Shown here: positions 984 through 13,478 of the stretch, one piece after another
Position numbering within the stretch: position 1 is the stretch's first letter
Layout: every line of letters begins with the position of its first letter
DNA from: Maridesulfovibrio ferrireducens
Lineage (GTDB): Bacteria; Desulfobacterota; Desulfovibrionia; Desulfovibrionales; Desulfovibrionaceae
DNA: 64,000 nt
Direction of reading: 5' to 3'
Assembly: GCF_016342405.1 (NCBI RefSeq)
Contig: NZ_JAEINN010000018.1
Coordinates: 1 to 64,000 of the forward strand
Program-made: the position numbers and the translations under genes
The notes under the pieces: generated by a model
The model's database searches: none
What the model saw: the letters and a program-made list of their open reading frames with translations, nothing else
Told to the model about the DNA's origin: nothing

Positions 984-2090
984 CTATGTGAACCGGCTGT
1001 TTACCCCCCCCATTTTACTGGCAAGGACATACCTGGTACCACTTCTATCCCCCTCTTTGTCGAGCAATTCCTCCTGAACGAGGCCCTTCAAAGCAGCGGA
1101 CACAGAACTATCAGAGTGTCCTTTTTTATCAGACTTGAAATCACCAGCCTTTATCGTTTTTCTCGTATGCGCTAATTCCATCATTTCTTCCTGCAAAGAA
1201 CTTAAACCGTATTCTTTCAGGTCAAGATCAGCCTTATAAGAACTATCCTCATGGATAACTTTTCGAGAAAAGATTCCATTATTATTCGAGTACACGACCC
1301 GAAAAGGACTCAGTTGATCCCCGTGCAAAAACCGGGAATCAACGATTTCGACATCAATAGCAGTACCCTGACTTCTATCACAGTCTTCAGGTCTTGATAA
1401 TCTGACAACCAGATCTGCGTCATCGCTGATCTTACCGGTTCCACGGATCTTACCATCCTTGTTAGTGTGATGAACAAGAATCACACTAACACCTTTAGCA
1501 TTCAATGATCGTATCCATATTTCCAGCTTACGCCAAAGCTCTGGACTTGTTTCTGCTCCAGGGGAAATCAACTTTCCCAGATTGTCGAAAAACACAACTT
1601 TGGACCTTGAGTCCTCAATCTGCTTCTGTATCCAGTTCTGATCAGCACTCTGAGAGATATCCAAAACTTTACCTATTTCACGCATAGGTATGATTCTGAT
1701 GTTTTTTGCATCCGAGTCATTACCGTAAAGAGCTTTGATATTATTCAGCCTCGACTTTATCTCATATCCGGGAAGTTCAGCATCAACAAGAAGCACGCCA
1801 CATGCCTTGGAACACTTAAACCTTGTGTCGTAATCTTTGCCAAGGGCAATTGCCATTAACAAGTCAAATGTGAAAAACGACTTTCCGGTTTTCTGAGCAC
1901 CGTGGATTACGACAAACTCGCCTGCAGCAAACAACGGATCAAGCTGGTATACTTTATTGTCAGTAGACGGCAAACTGTCGATTGAATAAATTTCTTCACG
2001 CCTAGCATCAACAACAGGAGCTGTTATACCATGATCCCGTTCAGCGATCCTGAAGAACCGCTCGACAGACTTTTCAAAAACGCCTTGCAT
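984..2090 (-). CDS. RepA-like hexameric-helicase ATPase (AAA_25/RecA-like fold)
   Basis: The 368-aa protein has a Walker A motif HGAQKTGKS at about residues 63-71, a Walker B strand VVFFDN at about 163-168, and the downstream VILVHHTNKDG...RGTG signature seen in RepA/RSF1010-type and phage-satellite replication ATPases. A C-terminal stretch (about 290-355) looks like a winged helix. An excellent ribosome-binding site (AAGGAG, 7 nt before ATG) fixes the start at 2090, which puts the first 67 bases inside the upstream primase-like gene. The role is probably helicase loading or unwinding at the origin of a plasmid-like or integrative element. The three minus-strand genes look like one operon. 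Confidence 0.75.
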   Translation of the reverse strand: MQGVFEKSVERFFRIAERDHGITAPVVDARREEIYSIDSLPSTDNKVYQLDPLFAAGEFVVIHGAQKTGKSFFTFDLLMAIALGKDYDTRFKCSKACGVLLVDAELPGYEIKSRLNNIKALYGNDSDAKNIRIIPMREIGKVLDISQSADQNWIQKQIEDSRSKVVFFDNLGKLISPGAETSPELWRKLEIWIRSLNAKGVSVILVHHTNKDGKIRGTGKISDDADLVVRLSRPEDCDRSQGTAIDVEIVDSRFLHGDQLSPFRVVYSNNNGIFSRKVIHEDSSYKADLDLKEYGLSSLQEEMMELAHTRKTIKAGDFKSDKKGHSDSSVSAALKGLVQEELLDKEGDRSGTRYVLASKMGGVNSRFT

Positions 2091-3124
2091 TTAATATCTC
2101 CTTTATTAATGAAGTTTGTATTAACTCCAAGTTCCTGAAGCCTTTGATAAAGACGCTTACCTAACTCCATTGAAACTCGACTATGTGTATCGTAGCAATA
2201 GGACACTTCCCGGCCTTTAATAATTTTCCAGTCGATTTCAGAACAGAATGAGAGTTCGCCAGACCACGTAGAAATGAATTCCAACGAATCTTTCAAACGC
2301 CACGCTTCATGCAAATCGCTATAGATTCGCACGGGCAGGTCTCGCTTGTTGTACAACCTGTCTAGATTGAAGATTATCGATGAAGCCGGGGGAGCTACAA
2401 ACTCCCACCTATAACCACCCTGAACACCTGCATGTTGACATGTCCTAAGGAGAAGAACCTGCTCACGGCTAGACGATTTTTTCCAACAACAAACGGAAAA
2501 GGAGGGCCTCCCATACGGATTTAAAAAAGGATAAACCCACCCGGGGGGGCCCAAAACAGGATGACGAATGCAGCCCACATATTCGACCTCATAAGGATCT
2601 GAAATAAACTTAAATCCAGAAACTCTTTGTATTTGCCGTACAGAACTCTGATGGATATCTATGCAGCCATATCTTGCAAGTTCAACAAATGCGTTTTCGT
2701 ATGAACACCCTTTAATATGCTGCGTTAGAGCCAAGATTCCATTACGATAAGAAGGCTGACAACCATATGCATAGGGTTCCATCCACCACTCACCAGACCA
2801 GTGATAAACGTTCCGTGTTCTGATTTGAGGCTGTCCCATACTACCATAAGAAAAATAGCACGATTCCTGTTCTCTATAACACTCATTAAAAGGCTTCAGA
2901 ACATACGAGATATAGCCATCGCTAAAAATATTCCCATTCTTTCGTCCTGCGGGAATCAATTTTTCAAGAATAGGCAGAGGATTAAACTCAGAGGACATAT
3001 AAACTTCATCAAGTTTACGGACAATATCCTGCACGCTTTGTCTTGGGTCTTTAATTCGCAGTTCAAGCGATTCACACGTTATATCCGGCATAGAAAGGAT
3101 ACTGGAAGCAAACATATTAGACAT
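2024..3124 (-). CDS. Primase-like/Toprim-like replication protein of the island
   Basis: The protein is 366 aa from the ATG at 3124; a GTG two codons earlier is possible. I assign a primase-like role mainly from context, since it sits between an AlpA-type regulator and a RepA-like ATPase, the usual order in satellite and ICE replication modules. Features in the sequence: an aromatic-rich middle with PFLNPYGRPSFSVCCWK, a VRIYSDLHEAWRLKDSLEF stretch resembling a Toprim-like core, and a following SYCYDTHS. I see no clear zinc finger. The start overlaps the upstream gene by 8 nt and the 3' end overlaps the ATPase gene by 67 nt, so translation is probably coupled. Confidence 0.5.
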   Translation of the reverse strand: MSNMFASSILSMPDITCESLELRIKDPRQSVQDIVRKLDEVYMSSEFNPLPILEKLIPAGRKNGNIFSDGYISYVLKPFNECYREQESCYFSYGSMGQPQIRTRNVYHWSGEWWMEPYAYGCQPSYRNGILALTQHIKGCSYENAFVELARYGCIDIHQSSVRQIQRVSGFKFISDPYEVEYVGCIRHPVLGPPGWVYPFLNPYGRPSFSVCCWKKSSSREQVLLLRTCQHAGVQGGYRWEFVAPPASSIIFNLDRLYNKRDLPVRIYSDLHEAWRLKDSLEFISTWSGELSFCSEIDWKIIKGREVSYCYDTHSRVSMELGKRLYQRLQELGVNTNFINKGDIKCKAFLKSLSSGSSGSLNGIMV

Positions 3125-3326
3125 GGCCACCCCCCACCCTTTCTACATTAGGATCCACCCTGTGACACATAACAAACTTTTCGACATCTTCGACGAGGTA
3201 GCGAACAGATTTCCCTAGCTTCACATAAGGCATTCCACGCCTGAAATGGCGATCTTTCCTGATTTTAGAAAGGGAGTAGCCAGTCATTTCAGAGACCTTC
3301 TTCTCATTCAACAATTGTAAAGACAT
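3117..3326 (-). CDS. AlpA/excisionase-like helix-turn-helix protein
   Basis: The 69-aa protein starts MSLQLLNEKKVSEMTGYSLS and continues KIRKDRHF..GMPYVKLGKSVRYLVEDVEKFV. This is the compact MerR-like HTH_17/AlpA layout (helix-turn-helix, then the G-x-VRY strand and a short helix). It has a good ribosome-binding site (GGAGG before ATG 3326). Proteins of this family act as regulators or recombination directionality factors in prophages and genomic islands. As first gene of the minus operon it probably controls the replication module or excision. Confidence 0.75.
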   Translation of the reverse strand: MSLQLLNEKKVSEMTGYSLSKIRKDRHFRRGMPYVKLGKSVRYLVEDVEKFVMCHRVDPNVERVGGGHV

Positions 3327-3839
3327 AATTTTACCCTCCAGTTACATTTTTTTGAACACAGAGGACAAGCTAGGGTAGTTAAGAAAAAGACTCTTTGGCG
3401 AGAAAATGGAAAAAATGAAAAACGATCATCCCTGGGGACAACCGTTCTATAATAGGCTCTACTCACGCCACATTTTATTACCTTCTATATACCGCTATAA
3501 ACGTCGCAATGATCCGTATTTATATCCTTAGATACGTTAAGCATGACTCTTGTTATGAGCTGATTTAAACAGGCTGAGGAAATAGTCGAGACAGTAAACA
3601 TACTTGGCAACTGTTGTGACAATGAAGGTATTGATGCAGCAATGTTCGGACTTAAAGGAGCTCTTGATAAAGCATACTCCAGATTGAAGAAATCAAATAG
3701 ACCCGTATGGACGGTTTCGAAATACCTAAGCACTTACTGCTAGCCACAATGACAAACGTTGTCCGAGAACCGCTGAACATGCTTTAAAAGTTAAGCGTAT
3801 TAGTGTAGAATCCAGCCGCTGGCATCGATGATTATGACT
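3327..3839. other. Gene-free stretch with debris of unidentified coding sequence
   Basis: No intact gene is visible. At 3564-3743 a plus-strand frame of 60 codons (FKQAEEIVETVNILGNC...ALDKAYSRLKKS, ending at TAG) reads like part of a real soluble helical protein, but it follows directly on an in-frame TGA and has no start. A second fragment at about 3735-3830 (EHALKVKRISVESSRWHR) is in another frame. I cannot name either. They look like remains of decayed island genes next to the SbcC remnant. Confidence 0.45.
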
Positions 3840-4042
3840 ACGATCAGGGTGAAGTCGCATTCGACCTAACATTTGCCATTGATCCCAAAATGGAGCTTGC
3901 CGCACATGGAAACATTGTCTGACCTGCAGCAGGGCGGCAAACTGATCGGAATCATCTCCCACGTATCTACACTGAAAAAAAGAATCAGCCCCAGATAACC
4001 ATCACACCTGCCTCCGGCGGCCGCAGTTCACTGTCCGGCTCG
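3840..4042 (+). pseudogene. Remnant of the C-terminal end of SbcC-type exonuclease ATPase
   Basis: METLSDLQQGGKLIGIISHV at 3906-3965 is a near-consensus match to the end of SbcC (D/ETLS.LQ..GK.IGIISHVE.LKERI). After a one-base frameshift near 3990 it continues QITITPASGGRSSLSG, the usual SbcC tail. In a third frame just upstream, AIDPKMELAA fits the ALDPE.LE.A stretch after the Walker B. Only about 65 codons survive and the frame is broken at least twice. The last frame reads openly into the DUF262 gene, so the remnant lies directly upstream of it. Confidence 0.7.
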
Positions 4043-4078
4043 GTGAGTAAAAAGGTGGTTAAAAATGAAGGATATGTT

Positions 4079-5917
4079 ATGGATAAACAGACTCTAAGCA
4101 TCTTATTTAGCGGGAAAATTTTCAAAATACCTAATTATCAAAGAGGATACGCCTGGAAAGAAAAGCAATGGAACGAATTAATTGAAGATATTGATGCTCT
4201 TGTTACGGATGAGAGAGTCAAATCACATTATACAGGTACCGTTGTTACCTTTTCCCCCAAGGACAACACAGCTGTTTACAACCGGAAGCCTGTGAAAGTT
4301 GTTGATGTCGTTGACGGGCAACAACGCCTGACTACTGTATGTCTTTATGTTGCTGCCATTATTAGAGCTTTGGTTGCAAATGGGGAGCCTGACTATGCAC
4401 AGGACATCCCTGAATTTCTATATCACGATACTACCTGCCGCCTAACCTTGAACAATTCCACTGATGATCTTTTTTATCAATTGATTAAAGATGGAAAGCC
4501 AAGAAGTGAGGTAGCAACACCTCATCAAAAACGTCTAGTTGCAGCTTCTGAAAAGTTCTCAGGTTATATCGAAAAGCAATTGAACGACAAAAACAGAGGG
4601 ATCGAGCATTTAAAACAACTCTTCGCGGCAATAACGGGTAGCCTAGTGTTTACCTATTACACCATTGAAGAAGAGTGTGAAATCGGAATGACATTTGAAC
4701 TGATGAATTCTCGCGGAAAAGGACTTTCCATTCTTGAACTGTTGAAAAACTATCTCATGCATTGGATATCAAGGAATGGAACAGATGAAGAGAGAAAGCC
4801 GCTAACTGACATTGTCAATAGTGCATGGAGAGATACATACAGCAATATAGGAAAATCCTCTGGAAGCGATGAGCAATGTCTCCGAGTTGCTTGGATTTTG
4901 TATTGCCATCATCTGCCAAAAAACTGGAAGGGTTACGATGGATTTAAATCAAAACAATATATTCCGCTTAGGGAGTTTTCTGTTAAAAGGAGAGACGAGG
5001 TAAAAGACTTCCTTGCATCTTTTACTAATGGCCTTGCTGAGATATCTAAGCATTACAGTGTAATTGTCTCGCCTGCACAAAACAATACACGGAGTAACCG
5101 TGAGCTGGATTGGCTTACAAAAATTCACAACACTGGTAATATTGCCAATTTCCTTCCTCTTATGATAGCTGCACGCATTCTCTGTGAAGACAAAAAGATT
5201 GATGAAGATTTGTATGTCAAGTTGCTTGAATCATTAGAGTGTTTTGCATTCAGGGTCTTTTTGATTGAAGGAAAGAGAAGCAATGCGGGTAAATCGAGCT
5301 TTTATCGCTGGGGTAAAGAACTTTTCAAGAATGAGCATTCAGCAGAAGATATTGTCAGCTTTGTACACAGCCTAATTCGATACTATTCACCTGAAAACGA
5401 GTTTGTTGAAAAGTTGAACAAGCCATCAAGTTGGTACTCTCGACGTCATTCGCTCAAGTACACACTTTTTGAATACGAAAAGCATCTTTTGGATAGCGAG
5501 AGTAAGGGCCAAAAACCACGGGTAACGTGGGCGGATTTATCCAGACATTCAACTATTGAGCATATTTTACCGCAAACTCCAAAGAAAGACTCTCACTGGC
5601 TCAAAGTTTGGAATGTTGATGATATTAATAAATACCTCCATGATATAGGGAACCTAGTTCTCACAAGAGATAACTCAAGCTATTTGAATTTTGAGTTCGT
5701 TAGAAAAAAAGGCGATGTAGGTACTGGTGTTGGATACAGCAATTCCGATATCAGGCAGGAACGAAAAATAGCAACATTCCTTGAATGGGATAAGAAAGCA
5801 GTTGAGACTCGTCGAACAGAATTAGTTAAATGGATAACCTGCCGATGGAAGACTGTTGAGGTTGTAGCCGCATCTGACGTGGATGAAGATGCTGATGAAG
5901 AGCTAATCAGTGAATGA
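4079..5917 (+). CDS. DUF262-DUF1524 protein, GmrSD-type restriction/defence nuclease
   Basis: The protein is 612 aa. I chose ATG 4079 because GAAGGA lies 6 nt upstream; the frame stays open further 5' only because it runs into SbcC debris. The N-terminal DUF262 (GmrS-like) domain shows IPNYQRGYAWKEKQW (about 17-31) and the hallmark DGQQRLTT (about 79-86), used for nucleotide-dependent action. The C-terminal DUF1524 (GmrD-like) HNH domain shows STIEHILPQ with the His at about 495, followed by GNLVLTRDNSSYLN. The family includes modification-dependent type IV restriction enzymes such as GmrSD of E. coli and the related BrxU. The motif residues are intact, so it should be active. It is first in an operon with a decayed ADP-ribosylglycohydrolase and a nuclease-like gene. 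Confidence 0.85.
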   Translation: MDKQTLSILFSGKIFKIPNYQRGYAWKEKQWNELIEDIDALVTDERVKSHYTGTVVTFSPKDNTAVYNRKPVKVVDVVDGQQRLTTVCLYVAAIIRALVANGEPDYAQDIPEFLYHDTTCRLTLNNSTDDLFYQLIKDGKPRSEVATPHQKRLVAASEKFSGYIEKQLNDKNRGIEHLKQLFAAITGSLVFTYYTIEEECEIGMTFELMNSRGKGLSILELLKNYLMHWISRNGTDEERKPLTDIVNSAWRDTYSNIGKSSGSDEQCLRVAWILYCHHLPKNWKGYDGFKSKQYIPLREFSVKRRDEVKDFLASFTNGLAEISKHYSVIVSPAQNNTRSNRELDWLTKIHNTGNIANFLPLMIAARILCEDKKIDEDLYVKLLESLECFAFRVFLIEGKRSNAGKSSFYRWGKELFKNEHSAEDIVSFVHSLIRYYSPENEFVEKLNKPSSWYSRRHSLKYTLFEYEKHLLDSESKGQKPRVTWADLSRHSTIEHILPQTPKKDSHWLKVWNVDDINKYLHDIGNLVLTRDNSSYLNFEFVRKKGDVGTGVGYSNSDIRQERKIATFLEWDKKAVETRRTELVKWITCRWKTVEVVAASDVDEDADEELISE

Positions 5918-5921
5918 CTAT

Positions 5922-6423
5922 ATGTCTGATGTTATAAATCGAACCCAAGACTGCTTGGTTGGCCAGTTCGCCGGTGATGTGCTGGTAAGTCTGGTTAAGT
6001 TCCAGTCCCCGGATGGTGTACGAGAACTGGCGAGATGGCGAGACATGAAATACTATTGCAGGTCAGCCTACCGATGAGTCCGAGATGAGTCTGCACCTTG
6101 CCCGAATGCTGGTGAAAATGGGTTCGCATGATCCGAAGACAGCACGTAAGGAATATCAATCAGGTCAATAGAGCCATGATGCGATCAGCCCGCTCGGTAT
6201 CTTCGGAACCGTATTTAAACTGAATCGGGTGGTTGAATAGGCATGAGGGACACTGTTAGGCGCTGTGTACGGTCGAAAGACTATTCCGGCCCAGTTTTAA
6301 CTCGACTCCCTGCAAAACTGCACAGAGACCGGATATCTGCAAGTACGCCATCCTCGCCCGGAATGCTTCTGGCCGGTTGATGTTCTGGAGCGGTTTGGGC
6401 GGTTGATGGAGAAAAGAACATGA
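5922..6423 (+). pseudogene. Decayed ADP-ribosylglycohydrolase (DraG-like) gene
   Basis: The ATG lies 4 nt after the DUF262 stop and begins MSDVINRTQDCLVGQFAGDV...LVKFQSPDGVREL, a typical ADP-ribosylglycohydrolase N-terminus. The frame breaks and resumes as GQPTDESEMSLHLARMLV, the metal-binding T-D-(D/E)-(S/T)-E-M motif. Another frame gives AISPLGIFG at 6181-6207, a second family hallmark. The rest jumps to GTLLGAVYGRKTIPAQF, a stop, and RPECFWPVDVLERFGRLM, matching the C-terminal end. It carries several frameshifts, a stop and a large internal deletion, and cannot make an enzyme. Its last codons overlap the next gene (ATGA at 6420), so this was once the middle gene of the operon. Confidence 0.8.
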
Positions 6424-7061
6424 ATTTATTAGAAGGTAGCTTTGAAGAAAGGCTTAGGAAGATTATCTCATTTGCATGGCAGGTTTTTATGGAAAAAACA
6501 GGCACGGACTTGTTGCCGATTACCAAAGAAGCATCAATGCAGTTGCAGTATTCGTATATTTTACAACAGGTTATTCCTCTAATCTGTTTCCATGAAAATG
6601 AAACCGTAAAAATTGAACTGGAAACAGGTGTCACAGTTAATGGCAGGAGCCGTGAAATCGATTTAATATTAGACGGAATTAACTCTCAAGGCTGTCACAG
6701 AATCGCTGTCGAAATGAAGTGTTATCGGACACTTGCCTCGTCAGGAGGAAAGCGTGGGGCCACTGATATTTTCATGAAGGATGTCTATGAGGACCTGAGC
6801 TTATTGGAAGAGTATTGTAACTATGCCGGTTTTAATCGTGGTGTCGCCTTGGTTATGAACGATATGGAACGACTTGTATCTCCAAAGAAAAAAGATGGAA
6901 AATGTTGGGACTATGATATTTCACATGGCACCCAAATAAGTGATGTACATCTGACAACTCCGATTGGGGGGAAACAAATCAATATTCGGCTCAACAAAAC
7001 ATACGATTTTATATGGGTCCAAAAGGGTCAATTTTGGTTTTTGGAAAATGAAGGATTGTAG
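6420..7061 (+). CDS. PD-(D/E)XK-like nuclease, probable restriction/defence protein
   Basis: This 213-aa soluble protein has a good ribosome-binding site (GGAG, 8 nt before ATG 6420). A helical N-terminus (1-55) leads to a candidate nuclease core: Asp81 in SREIDLIL, then Glu98-x-Lys100 in RIAVEMKCYR, which is the D-(x)n-ExK pattern on adjacent beta strands. A later helical region follows (DIFMKDVYEDLSLLEEYC, about 116-133) and another strand, GVALVMND. I infer a Mg-dependent nuclease; no family name is certain. The start overlaps the decayed ADP-ribosylglycohydrolase gene by 4 nt, so it belongs to the DUF262 operon. Confidence 0.6.
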   Translation: MNLLEGSFEERLRKIISFAWQVFMEKTGTDLLPITKEASMQLQYSYILQQVIPLICFHENETVKIELETGVTVNGRSREIDLILDGINSQGCHRIAVEMKCYRTLASSGGKRGATDIFMKDVYEDLSLLEEYCNYAGFNRGVALVMNDMERLVSPKKKDGKCWDYDISHGTQISDVHLTTPIGGKQINIRLNKTYDFIWVQKGQFWFLENEGL

Positions 7062-7426
7062 GGATTTGGCCAATCTAACTTGACCTAGAGAGTCGGCTGG
7101 CTTTGCTACTTCCGAACTAACAAGTCTGAGGAACTTCAAAAAAAACTAAATAAACACCGAATTCCCGTTCAGATTTGGAAGGTACCGAGACAACGGTGCG
7201 GCAATGCAAGGCAGATAAAGGCCCCAAAAAAGACCTTAGACTTCTATAAAATGTTTGACGTTGAAATACACTCACAAGTCAGCAAACACATGAGAAGTCC
7301 AATTAAGACCCATGGATACTGAAATCCAGCAATTAAATCTTAATCACAATCAGGATGCCCCATAAGTCTTTCCTTCCATTTTCCTCATTTTCACCCCAAA
7401 GGTTGGACATACGGTTGGACACAAAA
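7062..7426. other. Non-coding end of the island; no integrase gene seen
   Basis: I find no supported gene in either direction between the nuclease gene and the tRNA terminator. An integrase is often found beside the tRNA end of such islands, but no tyrosine-recombinase motif (R..HxxR..Y) is recognisable in any frame here. The only structure is the GGTTGGACA direct repeat at 7401-7421. Confidence 0.4.
7401..7421. repeat. Direct repeat GGTTGGACA x2
   Basis: GGTTGGACA occurs at 7401-7409 and 7413-7421, 12 bp apart, about 50 bp from the 3' end of the tRNA-Arg gene. The period and position would suit integrase or excisionase arm-type sites of an element using this tRNA, but this is inference from position alone. 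Confidence 0.35.
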
Positions 7427-7459
7427 AAAGGTTTACAACAATATATGTCGTAAACCTTT
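7427..7459 (-). terminator. Rho-independent terminator of tRNA-Arg
   Basis: AAAGGTTTAC (7427-7436) and GTAAACCTTT (7450-7459) pair over 10 bp. On the minus strand the second arm is followed by a T-run (7429-7423). It lies 9 nt beyond the tRNA CCA end and so ends the tRNA transcript. Confidence 0.8.
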
Positions 7460-7467
7460 GATTTATA

Positions 7468-7544
7468 TGGTGACCCCGAAAGGAATCGAACCTTTGACAC
7501 CAAGATTAGGAATCTTGCGCTCTATCCGACTGAGCTACGGGGCC
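7468..7544 (-). tRNA. tRNA-Arg (anticodon CCT)
   Basis: The 77-nt minus-strand cloverleaf has acceptor arm GGCCCCG/CGGGGTC with one G-U pair, D arm TAGCTCAGTCGGATAGAGC, anticodon stem CAAGA/TCTTG around loop TTCCTAA (anticodon CCT), T arm GGTTCGATTCC, and an encoded CCA at 7470-7468. It reads AGG codons. tRNA 3' ends are common integration targets, and accessory genes lie directly on its 3' side. Confidence 0.93.
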
Positions 7545-7772
7545 ACTTTATATGAAAACAGGCCGGATAAAGTTATTACCCGCCTGAGCTGAGAAGATAT
7601 ATACAAGTCGGTTTTCTATTGCAAGATTTTTCTTATATTATTTCCAATAAGTCTCAAACTGCGCCACCTCTTTTAAATAGTTCAACATACCGACATAATT
7701 CTTATATAAAAAGTGATTATCTATGTCGCATTTTGTTGACAGCGGTATTTTTTCATGCAAATGAAGCAGCAG

Positions 7773-11549: not shown

Positions 11550-13478
11550 ATGCTAGTTGCAGGAAATGAAATTGAAGTAGAGCAAGGCGCCACAATCGGC
11601 GAAGTACTCAAAGAAGCCCTGTCTAAAAAACAGTTCAAGAGTGCTGTTGCGGCAAAATGCTGCGACTCATTTATTGACCTTTCATCCCCCGTTCCTGCGG
11701 ACTGCACAACGCTTGAACCTGTCATGGATACGTCTGATGAAGGAATTGAAATAATCCGTCACTCTACAGCTCACCTTATGGCTGAAGCTGTAAAAAAACT
11801 TTTCCCCACAGCAAAAGTAACCATCGGCCCTTCAATTGCCAAAGGCTTTTACTACGATTTCGAATACGAACGCCCTTTTACACCTGAAGACCTTGAAGCT
11901 ATTGAAGCCGAAATGCTTCGCCGTGTAGGAGCTAACGAAGAATTTTCAAGAGAAGAGCTTTCCAGCGCAGATGCCAGAGAAAAATTCGACAAAATGGGTG
12001 AAGCCTACAAGGTGGAACTTATTGACGACCTCGGCGCTGAAACTGTTTCTATCTATACAAACGGTGATTTCTGCGATCTTTGTCGTGGACCTCACGTTGC
12101 CCGCACAGGTATGCTTAAGGCTTTCAAGCTCCTATCTGTTGCAGGAGCCTACTGGCGCGGCGATGAAAATCGTGCCCAGCTTCAGCGTATATACGGAACC
12201 GCTTTTGCGGATGCTAAAACGCTGAAAAAACACCTACACCACCTCGAAGAAGCCAAAAAACGTGATCACCGCAAACTCGGAACTCAGCTGGATCTTTTTT
12301 CAGTGAACAACGAAGTCGGCGCAGGAATGATCATCTGGCATCCGAAAGGCGCTCTCATCAGAGCTGTCCTTGAAGACTTCGAACGTAAAGAACATCTGAA
12401 ACGCGGTTATAGTTTTGTTCAGGGTCCACTTATTCTCAAAAGAGAACTATGGGAACGCTCAGGACATTACGATAACTATCGTGAAAATATGTATTTTACT
12501 GAGATTGACGATCAGGCATACGGTATCAAACCTATGAACTGTCTTTCTCATATGCTGGTTTTTAAATCCAGAATTCGCAGCTATCGCGACCTTCCACAGC
12601 GCTATTTTGAGCTTGGAGTCGTACATCGCCACGAAAAATCAGGTGTTCTGCACGGATTGTTGAGAGTGCGCTCCTTTACTCAGGATGATGCACACATTCT
12701 CTGCCGTCAGGATCAACTCAGAGATGAAATTATCGGCGTAGCAAAATTCGTCGGCGATATAATGAATCTTTTCGGATTTAACTATGAAGCGGAAATCAGC
12801 ACCAAGCCTGAAAAAGCTATCGGTTCCGAAGAAGATTGGGATAAAGCAACTTTTGCACTGAAAGATGCACTCGATACAATGGGCATGGAGTATTCAATTA
12901 ATGAAGGTGATGGAGCTTTTTACGGCCCCAAAATCGACATAATTATCAAAGATGCGCTTGACCGTCGTTGGCAGTGTGCTACTATTCAGTGTGATTTTAC
13001 CTTGCCAGACAGGTTCGACTTAGTATATGTGGGCGAAGACGGTGCGAAACACAGACCAGTAATGCTACATCGCGTCATCCTCGGCTCCATTGAAAGATTC
13101 ATCGGAGTCCTGCTCGAACACACAGGTGGAGCTATGCCCGCTTGGTTATCTCCTGTTCAGGCAAAAATACTTACTGTTACTGACACTCAGAACGAATTCG
13201 CCGAAAAAGTCTTGCGATTTCTGCAAGAAAAGGGCATTCGTGCTGAGGTTGATATACGCAATGAGAAATTGGGCTACAAAGTACGGGAAGCTCAATTAGA
13301 AAAGATCCCGTACATGTTGATAATCGGCGACAACGAGGTCGCAGCGGAATCGGTCAATGTAAGGGCCCGCGACGGGGAAGACCCGGGACTCAAGCCTCTT
13401 GATGAAGCGGCAGAGCTTATTTCGACCGCCATCAACGAACCATTCAAACGCGGAGGCATGAGCTATAGCTTTTCATAA
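11550..13478 (+). CDS. thrS: Threonine-tRNA ligase
   Basis: The 642-aa protein has the same length as E. coli ThrRS. Domain order is visible: TGS (1-60), second additional domain with the [12 protein letters not shown] zinc/editing signature (about 67-78), class II catalytic core and C-terminal anticodon domain. Core motifs include KPMNCLSHM (zinc Cys), [20 protein letters not shown] (motif 2) and [13 protein letters not shown] (motif 3). The start has a purine-rich GAGAGAGAG upstream. It is the first gene of thrS-infC-rpmI-rplT-pheS. Its last 14 bases overlap the infC start. Confidence 0.97.

What the first reader, a model, noticed from the sequence alone, without database searches (positions are those of the whole stretch)
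4079..7061. DUF262/DUF1524 + ADP-ribosylglycohydrolase (decayed) + PD-(D/E)XK-like operon
Seen in sequence: an intact DUF262-DUF1524 gene, 4 bp later the start of a broken ADP-ribosylglycohydrolase gene, and a 4-nt ATGA overlap from its end into an intact gene with a D81..E98-x-K100 core. These native junctions show a former three-gene operon. DUF262/DUF1524 proteins are modification-dependent restriction enzymes; ADP-ribosylglycohydrolases remove ADP-ribose. The combination suggests a defence system that once used or countered ADP-ribosylation of nucleic acid or protein. Loss of only the middle gene suggests it had become dispensable or harmful.
Basis: partly seen in the sequence, partly recalled or inferred. 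Interest (0 to 1): 0.8.

Follow-up and report, generated by a model that had tools for sequence, protein, structure and literature searches.

The report
Broken ADP-ribose eraser inside defence operon
A bacterial anti-virus gene cluster carries an intact DNA-cutting enzyme, the wreck of an enzyme that strips ADP-ribose tags, and a second likely DNA-cutting enzyme; intact relatives of the wrecked gene end several other defence clusters, where they may undo tags that viruses use to switch defences off.

Summary
4079-5917 is an intact GmrSD gene; 5922-6422 is a decayed ADP-ribosylglycohydrolase (ARH) starting 4 bp after it and ending in an ATGA overlap with 6420-7061, an intact gene ('G3') with invariant E37/D81/E98/K100 and a confident PD-(D/E)XK-like model. 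No intact GmrSD-ARH-G3 trio was found in the samples searched, but two related gammaproteobacterial MAGs have GmrSD, an ARH-tail relic and G3 in that order. The relic groups (100/97, about 70% identity) with intact ARHs ending Mrr-McrBC operons; relatives end a Hachiman operon, a BrxL-Mrr-ATPase cluster and a PDC-S68 operon, twice followed by another REase. Best reading: an accessory eraser that reverses phage ADP-ribosylation. That mechanism is inferred; published Brig1/Brig3 islands also carry an ARH that was not needed against T4. ARH-REase systems were predicted in 2022; exchangeable placement behind named restriction systems, and loss with both nucleases intact, are the added points. G3 is a separate defence-island family (39 loci, no Pfam, PADLOC or NCBIfam model). 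New variant of a known kind.

The parts
4079..5917 (+). Intact GmrSD-type (DUF262-DUF1524) restriction enzyme gene, 612 aa
   Evidence: Pfam GmrSD_N 2.6e-32 and GmrSD_C 8.2e-21; PADLOC HEC-06 1.9e-63; only match in the genome at E 0.001; motifs
5922..6422 (+). Decayed ADP-ribosylglycohydrolase gene: four collinear pieces in two frames, in-frame stops, internal deletion
   Evidence: Subfamily profile hits 5925-6026, 6028-6162, 6184-6243, 6244-6414; plasmid ARHs best E 7e-14; place in the tree
6420..7061 (+). Intact gene G3, 213 aa, predicted PD-(D/E)XK nuclease of a family without a Pfam, PADLOC or NCBIfam model
3906..3995 (+). Piece resembling the SbcC C-terminus in a degraded stretch upstream of GmrSD (weak)
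   Evidence: phmmer against PDB: SbcCD subunit C residues 999-1025 of 1048, E 0.11
7468..7544 (-). tRNA-Arg (CCT) whose 3' end faces the cluster; possible island boundary (inference)
   Evidence: ARAGORN; no 14-base repeat of 7301-7600 elsewhere in the window, which begins at the contig start

Best explanation
A defence-island operon. GmrSD cuts modified phage DNA (established for the family, not tested here); G3 is a second, PD-(D/E)XK-type nuclease (inferred from fold and residues); between them stood an ARH of a subfamily that is attached, exchangeably, to the 3' end of different defence systems (seen). The ARH most likely acted as an eraser that removed ADP-ribose put by phage transferases on defence enzymes or other host proteins (inferred). 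As an accessory it could be lost while both nucleases stayed open, as seen here and in the L008/L010 lineage.
For: Junctions and collinear ARH pieces. The relic groups with ARHs that end Mrr-McrBC operons, support 100/97, 70% identity over 152 columns. Related ARHs directly follow the last gene of a BrxL-Mrr-SMC-like cluster (L060), PDC-S68 (L062) and Hachiman HamAB (L127); L129 has two short HamB-like pieces (29 and 27 residues, E 2e-6 and 3e-4) just upstream of its ARH, as if Hachiman was lost there. Defence label clusters on the tree, 0 of 500 shuffles as low. PF22558, 'Restriction Endonuclease associating with ARP', follows the ARH in L067, a 64% identical protein in L127. TDDS and GGDTDTN invariant in 10 of 10 aligned intact relatives (their role in metal binding is recalled). 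ARH-tail relic before G3 in L008 and L010. In print: phages ADP-ribosylate immune proteins (T4 Alt on MazF, AcrIF11 on Cas8f/Csy1; PMC10286901 passages; PMC12421852 passages) and human MacroD2 removed the tag from Csy1 in lysate; Iyer et al. predict ARG-centred host systems against viral ADP-ribosylation with REase add-ons (PMC9503650, section 3.8 read in full).
Against: No substrate or activity was tested. Brig1 and Brig3, defence DNA glycosylases beside a predicted ARH, protect against T4-type phages without it: the ARH fragment alone gave no protection and ORF1 (Brig3) was solely responsible (PMC13160076, one section read; PMC11078745, passages); T4 carries transferases, so an eraser was not needed there. 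Whether those ARHs belong to this subfamily was not tested. In PMC12421852 over-expressed macrodomains did not restore immunity in cells. Loss of the ARH also fits a useless passenger. In the window's phylum only 1 of 11 subfamily genes found in 395 genomes lies in a recognisable defence operon (L127); neighbours of most others were judged by eye, one (L137) has its upstream side cut off, and L129 has the HamB-like pieces. Five distinct partners are few and three McrBC loci are near copies. No Nudix/WYL regulator or phosphatase, common in the published systems, among six window proteins scanned.
Confidence: 0.38

Rival explanations
1. The ARH is cargo: it travelled with defence islands, had no part in defence, and decayed because it was useless.
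For: Lost in two lineages while both nucleases stay open. 51% GC against 39-40% for its neighbours; third-position GC 0.51 against 0.36 and 0.39. Many subfamily members have no recognised defence neighbour. The ARH beside Brig3 was not needed for defence.
Against: Overlaps or gaps of a few bases with the last gene of several unrelated systems and clustering of that context on the tree suggest co-transcription kept by selection.
Confidence: 0.29
2. The ARH acts on nucleic acid: it removes ADP-ribose from DNA or RNA so that nucleases can cut or the host survives.
For: Its partners in the tight operons act on nucleic acid (Mrr, McrBC, GmrSD, HamB, PDC-S68 helicase, REase-ARP).
Against: PMC9503650 argues that ARG domains prefer macromolecular adducts and that characterised members act on proteins. 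No DNA-modifying transferase was seen beside them.
Confidence: 0.15
3. The ARH reverses the product of an own ADP-ribosyltransferase, as DraG does for DraT or an antitoxin for a toxin.
For: Classical role of DraG-type ARHs (established knowledge).
Against: No transferase among the neighbours scanned (not exhaustive), and the ARH was lost here with no other PF03747 match in the genome, which an antitoxin would not allow while its toxin is active.
Confidence: 0.06
4. Orthogonal to the others: G3 and GmrSD are independent neighbours in a defence island and the ARH belonged to only one of them.
For: G3 has 39 loci in varied settings; a GmrSD like the window's is found by tblastn in 3 of the 39 (L008, L010, L042).
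Against: ATGA overlap of ARH and G3, 4-bp gap from GmrSD, and the same order in L008/L010, though with a GmrSD only 26-27% identical.
Confidence: 0.3

Closest known systems
ARG-centred host systems of Iyer et al. 2022 (PMC9503650, section 3.8)
   Same: ARH without a linked transferase, restriction-endonuclease-fold and helicase add-ons, rapid gene exchange; proposed role against viral ADP-ribosylation.
   Different: There the core is Nudix/WYL regulators, phosphatases and chaperones. Here the ARH ends an already complete defence operon (GmrSD, Mrr-McrBC, Hachiman and others). McrB, GmrS, DUF262, Hachiman and BREX do not occur in that paper's main text.
Brig1 and Brig3 islands (PMC11078745, PMC13160076)
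   Same: A defence gene with a predicted ADP-ribosyl glycohydrolase beside it.
   Different: Partner is a DNA glycosylase; the ARH was dismissed for defence against T4(5hmC). Kinship to this subfamily not tested.
GmrSD type IV restriction enzymes (PF03235/PF07510; PADLOC HEC-06)
   Same: Both domains in one chain, DGQQR and HNH-like motifs.
   Different: Followed by a decayed ARH and a second nuclease.
Pfam PF22558 REase-ARP
   Same: Restriction-endonuclease family directly after an ARH of this subfamily in L067 and L127.
   Different: G3 takes that place in the window but has no Pfam hit to PF22558 at E 1.
DarTG and CmdTAC
   Same: ADP-ribose chemistry in phage defence (listing; otherwise recalled).
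   Different: They carry the transferase; here only an eraser is seen.

Membership tests
GmrSD | GmrSD_N and GmrSD_C domains above Pfam cut-off | tested here: met
   113 and 74.8 bits against 33.2 and 23
GmrSD | Cleavage of modified DNA | not testable with these tools
   Needs an assay
ADP-ribosylglycohydrolase (subfamily of profile A3) | Homology along the domain | tested here: met
   Three significant and one weak collinear piece
ADP-ribosylglycohydrolase (subfamily of profile A3) | Match to Pfam PF03747 | tested here: not met
   0 matches at E 0.001 in the own genome; probably because the pieces are short (inference)
ADP-ribosylglycohydrolase (subfamily of profile A3) | Open frame with both metal-site motifs | tested here: not met
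   Stops, a frame change and missing profile positions 145-257
PD-(D/E)XK nuclease (G3) | Invariant D...(D/E)xK | tested here: met
   D81, E98, K100 and E37 invariant in 33 rows
PD-(D/E)XK nuclease (G3) | Helix, three-strand sheet, helix, strand core | tested here: met
   H37-55, E62-73, E76-88, E91-102, H115-135, E140-147, mean pLDDT 94.5
PD-(D/E)XK nuclease (G3) | Clear match to a solved member | tested here: inconclusive
PD-(D/E)XK nuclease (G3) | Nuclease activity | not testable with these tools
   Needs an assay
ARG-centred systems (Iyer 2022) | ARH without linked ADP-ribosyltransferase | tested here: inconclusive
   None among six window proteins scanned; not exhaustive
ARG-centred systems (Iyer 2022) | Nudix or WYL regulator, or phosphatase, beside the ARH | tested here: not met
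   None among six window proteins scanned; in the paper over 42% and a little over 55% of systems, so common, not universal
ARG-centred systems (Iyer 2022) | REase-fold gene tightly coupled to the ARH | tested here: met
   G3 start overlaps the relic's stop by 4 bases; that G3 has the fold is itself a prediction

The most novel reading that the evidence does not exclude
One ARH subfamily is a portable anti-anti-defence module: it is clipped to the 3' end of unrelated systems (GmrSD, Mrr-McrBC, Hachiman, BrxL-Mrr, PDC-S68), at times with its own nuclease, and keeps them working by erasing ADP-ribose put on by phage transferases; where phages lack such weapons it is lost, as in this window.
Probability: 0.25. 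Interest if true: 0.8.

Novelty: new variant of a known kind. Interest (0 to 1): 0.5.

Why it matters
[quoted passage not shown] ARHs built into defence operons are concrete candidates for erasers, testable by deleting the gene from an operon and challenging with phages that do or do not carry transferases. The G3 family adds a widespread, unmodelled defence-island nuclease candidate.

Tried and rejected
Intact trio: not found. GmrSD side: none but the own in 395 genomes at E 1e-50 (weaker matches not viewed), none in viral contigs; the 568 plasmid and 16 phage records with GmrSD relatives were not examined for neighbours. ARH side: neighbours viewed for 12 of 41 viral loci (those), 14 genome regions and 3 of 43 plasmid records. 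All are samples, so an intact trio may exist.

PF03747 in the 37 searchable genomes that hold G3 loci (L034 not held): 14 of 37 have some ARH, none inside the held G3 loci.

A tmRNA reading of the sequence behind several ARH cassettes was dropped: ARAGORN finds no tmRNA in 36 loci, Rfam nothing at E 1 in five. SbcC remnant: no Pfam match, no second copy in the own genome, PDB only E 0.11. GC of the ARH: partly its amino-acid make-up; third-position GC is above all compared operon genes in the window, L061, L062 and L127, equal to one of two in L060, and in five orphan controls above all in one, mixed in one and below all in three, so only suggestive.

Tree rows: 28 intact ARHs, two of them outgroups, and the window pieces. 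Left out: partial copies L071 and L137, L059 (37% identity), 29 more distant viral loci, other ARHs and other plasmid ARHs. L063 (McrBC on the other strand, 90 bp away) was labelled 'other', L129 and L138 'unknown'. The split of all defence plus unknown rows from the others has weak support (54/85).

In print: the spelling mattered. Searches with 'ADP-ribosylglycohydrolase' found no paper joining it to DUF262 or Hachiman; of 310 papers only 25 were listed, each with 0 uses of that word. Of the 8 papers, three were opened for passages. That led to Brig3, and ('ADP-ribosyl glycohydrolase', 6 papers) to Brig1; the other papers were seen as listings, save PMC9503650-type ones cited. So ARHs beside defence genes are in print; I saw none with GmrSD, McrBC or Hachiman, in an open-access library. 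After this check I lowered the best reading from 0.42 to 0.38, the novel case from 0.30 to 0.25 and interest from 0.55 to 0.50, and raised the cargo rival from 0.25 to 0.29.
Full report
What is there. Three neighbouring features on the + strand: an intact GmrSD gene (4079-5917), a wrecked ARH gene (5922-6422) and an intact small gene, G3 (6420-7061). Both Pfam domains of GmrSD score above cut-off and the genome has no second match. A profile of the fitting ARH subfamily finds, in the 4.2-Mb genome and at E up to 10, only this place, in four collinear pieces, three of them significant; profile positions 145-257 are gone and the rest lies in two frames with stops. The 4-bp gap after GmrSD and the ATGA overlap into G3 are what a tight operon looks like, so the relic is in its native place rather than a later insertion (inference).

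The order is not unique. In two gammaproteobacterial MAGs (L008, L010) a GmrSD (26-27% identical to the window's) is followed by 142 bp and then G3 (72 and 71% identical). Those 142 bp hold a match to the ARH tail just before G3, 23 of 27 bases, the best of 39 upstream stretches compared (scores 29 and 29, next 18); none of 2000 swap-based shuffles reached it in either (highest 24 for L008, 28 for L010). The protein-level match is weak (tblastx E 0.001 and above). The order GmrSD-(ARH)-G3 thus probably existed at least twice, with different GmrSD proteins, and the ARH broke both times. The two MAGs come from one family and count as one case.

Where the ARH belongs. Intact relatives came from viral contigs (12 loci), plasmids and genomes (11 of 395 of the window's phylum and 1 of 369 of the L008 class at E 1e-80; 2 of 398 of the L008 phylum with a single query at E 1e-60). 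In a maximum-likelihood tree of 29 rows the window relic groups with three ARHs that end an Mrr-McrB-McrC operon (L061, L067, L069, near copies of one another), support 100/97, up to 70% identity. L060 joins them with moderate support (87/83): BrxL, Mrr, an SMC-like ATPase, then the ARH. A second set (100/99) holds L062 (1251-aa PDC-S68 helicase, then ARH), L127 (HamA, HamB, ARH, REase), L129 (ARH with two short HamB-like pieces just upstream, downstream side cut by the contig end) and L138 (dynamin-like genes upstream and a helicase downstream, each over 300 bp away). Seven rows were labelled defence, 20 other, two unknown; the labels cluster (0 of 500 shuffles as low), with the caution that near copies help. 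That the two defence sets form one clade is not shown. L067 has PF22558, 'Restriction Endonuclease associating with ARP', after the ARH (E 4.7e-59), L127 a 64% identical protein there. The window's G3 sits in the same slot but is another family. Of the 11 subfamily genes of the window's phylum only L127 lies in a defence operon that I recognise (mostly by eye).

How it most likely works. Shown: context, conservation of ARH motifs in 10 aligned intact relatives, loss of the ARH with both nucleases still open. Inferred: GmrSD restricts modified phage DNA (established family knowledge), G3 cuts nucleic acid, and the ARH removes ADP-ribose that phage transferases attach to defence enzymes or other host proteins. 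In print: Iyer et al. (PMC9503650, section 3.8 read in full) argue that ARHs without a linked transferase should counter viral ADP-ribosylation and note REase and helicase add-ons; PMC12421852 (passages) shows that AcrIF11 ADP-ribosylates Csy1 and that human MacroD2 removes the tag in lysate, but immunity did not return in cells. Against: a predicted ARH lies beside the defence glycosylases Brig1 and Brig3; in the Brig3 island a fragment with the ARH gave no protection and Brig3 alone gave it against T4(5hmC) (PMC13160076, one section read; PMC11078745, passages). That shows that an ARH is not needed for that system, not what it does in others. An antitoxin role is unlikely, since this genome has no other PF03747 match.

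What is new. ARH plus REase as a counter to viral ADP-ribosylation is a published prediction, and ARHs beside defence glycosylases are in print. The exchangeable placement of one ARH subfamily behind GmrSD, Mrr-McrBC, Hachiman, BrxL-Mrr and PDC-S68, the GmrSD case with its second nuclease, and the decay in two lineages I did not see described (open-access library, see Tried and rejected for how much was opened). I rate it a new variant of a known kind, interest 0.5.

Limits.

Noticed in passing
Set 1: L061:9187-9421, L067:9931-10163, L069:9725-9940; set 2: L062:9827-10078, L127:7570-7831, L060:9220-9313 and 11723-11898: Behind the ARH cassette (with no, one or a small extra gene between) lies a conserved sequence of about 230-260 bp, in two sets (90-93% and 80-95% identical within a set; the sets are alike only by eye). 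By eye it has a tRNA T-arm-like stretch and ends in CCTCCACCA. ARAGORN and Rfam see nothing. In L060 it is split by about 2.4 kb. Possibly an attachment site.
   Followed up: partly
L034, L036, L038, L044 (scanned); L037, L039, L042, L146 (by eye): G3 relatives of 30-49% identity lie among type I restriction genes, after HsdS or before HsdR: a nuclease add-on to type I systems.
   Followed up: partly
window 984-3326: Minus-strand genes that look like a phage satellite or integrative element: a 69-aa protein with a sub-threshold HTH_17 match, a 368-aa protein without family and an AAA_25 ATPase.
   Followed up: no
window 3330-4078: Degraded stretch with an SbcC C-terminus-like piece at 3906-3995 directly before GmrSD; perhaps a further lost operon member.
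   Followed up: partly
L046 (genome G005, contig 2, 17314-17391): A same-genus genome keeps only a 26-position relic of G3 with a stop, so the cluster has also been lost in a near relative.
   Followed up: no
L129:1118-1291: Two HamB-like pieces just upstream of an intact ARH: a Hachiman operon that seems to have lost Hachiman and kept the ARH, the reverse of the window's case.
   Followed up: partly
L049: In the genome of locus L037 (Flavobacterium bizetiae): a 485-aa protein with a macro-like start and an ARH match, a KptA-like gene and a second ARH in a row; names other than ARH judged by eye.
   Followed up: no
L057:5161-7547: Rhodobacter plasmid: a protein annotated as inositol monophosphatase that holds an ARH match, followed by a NUDIX hydrolase gene.
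   Followed up: no
L011:269-901: A G3 copy with two stop codons: G3 itself also decays in places.
   Followed up: no
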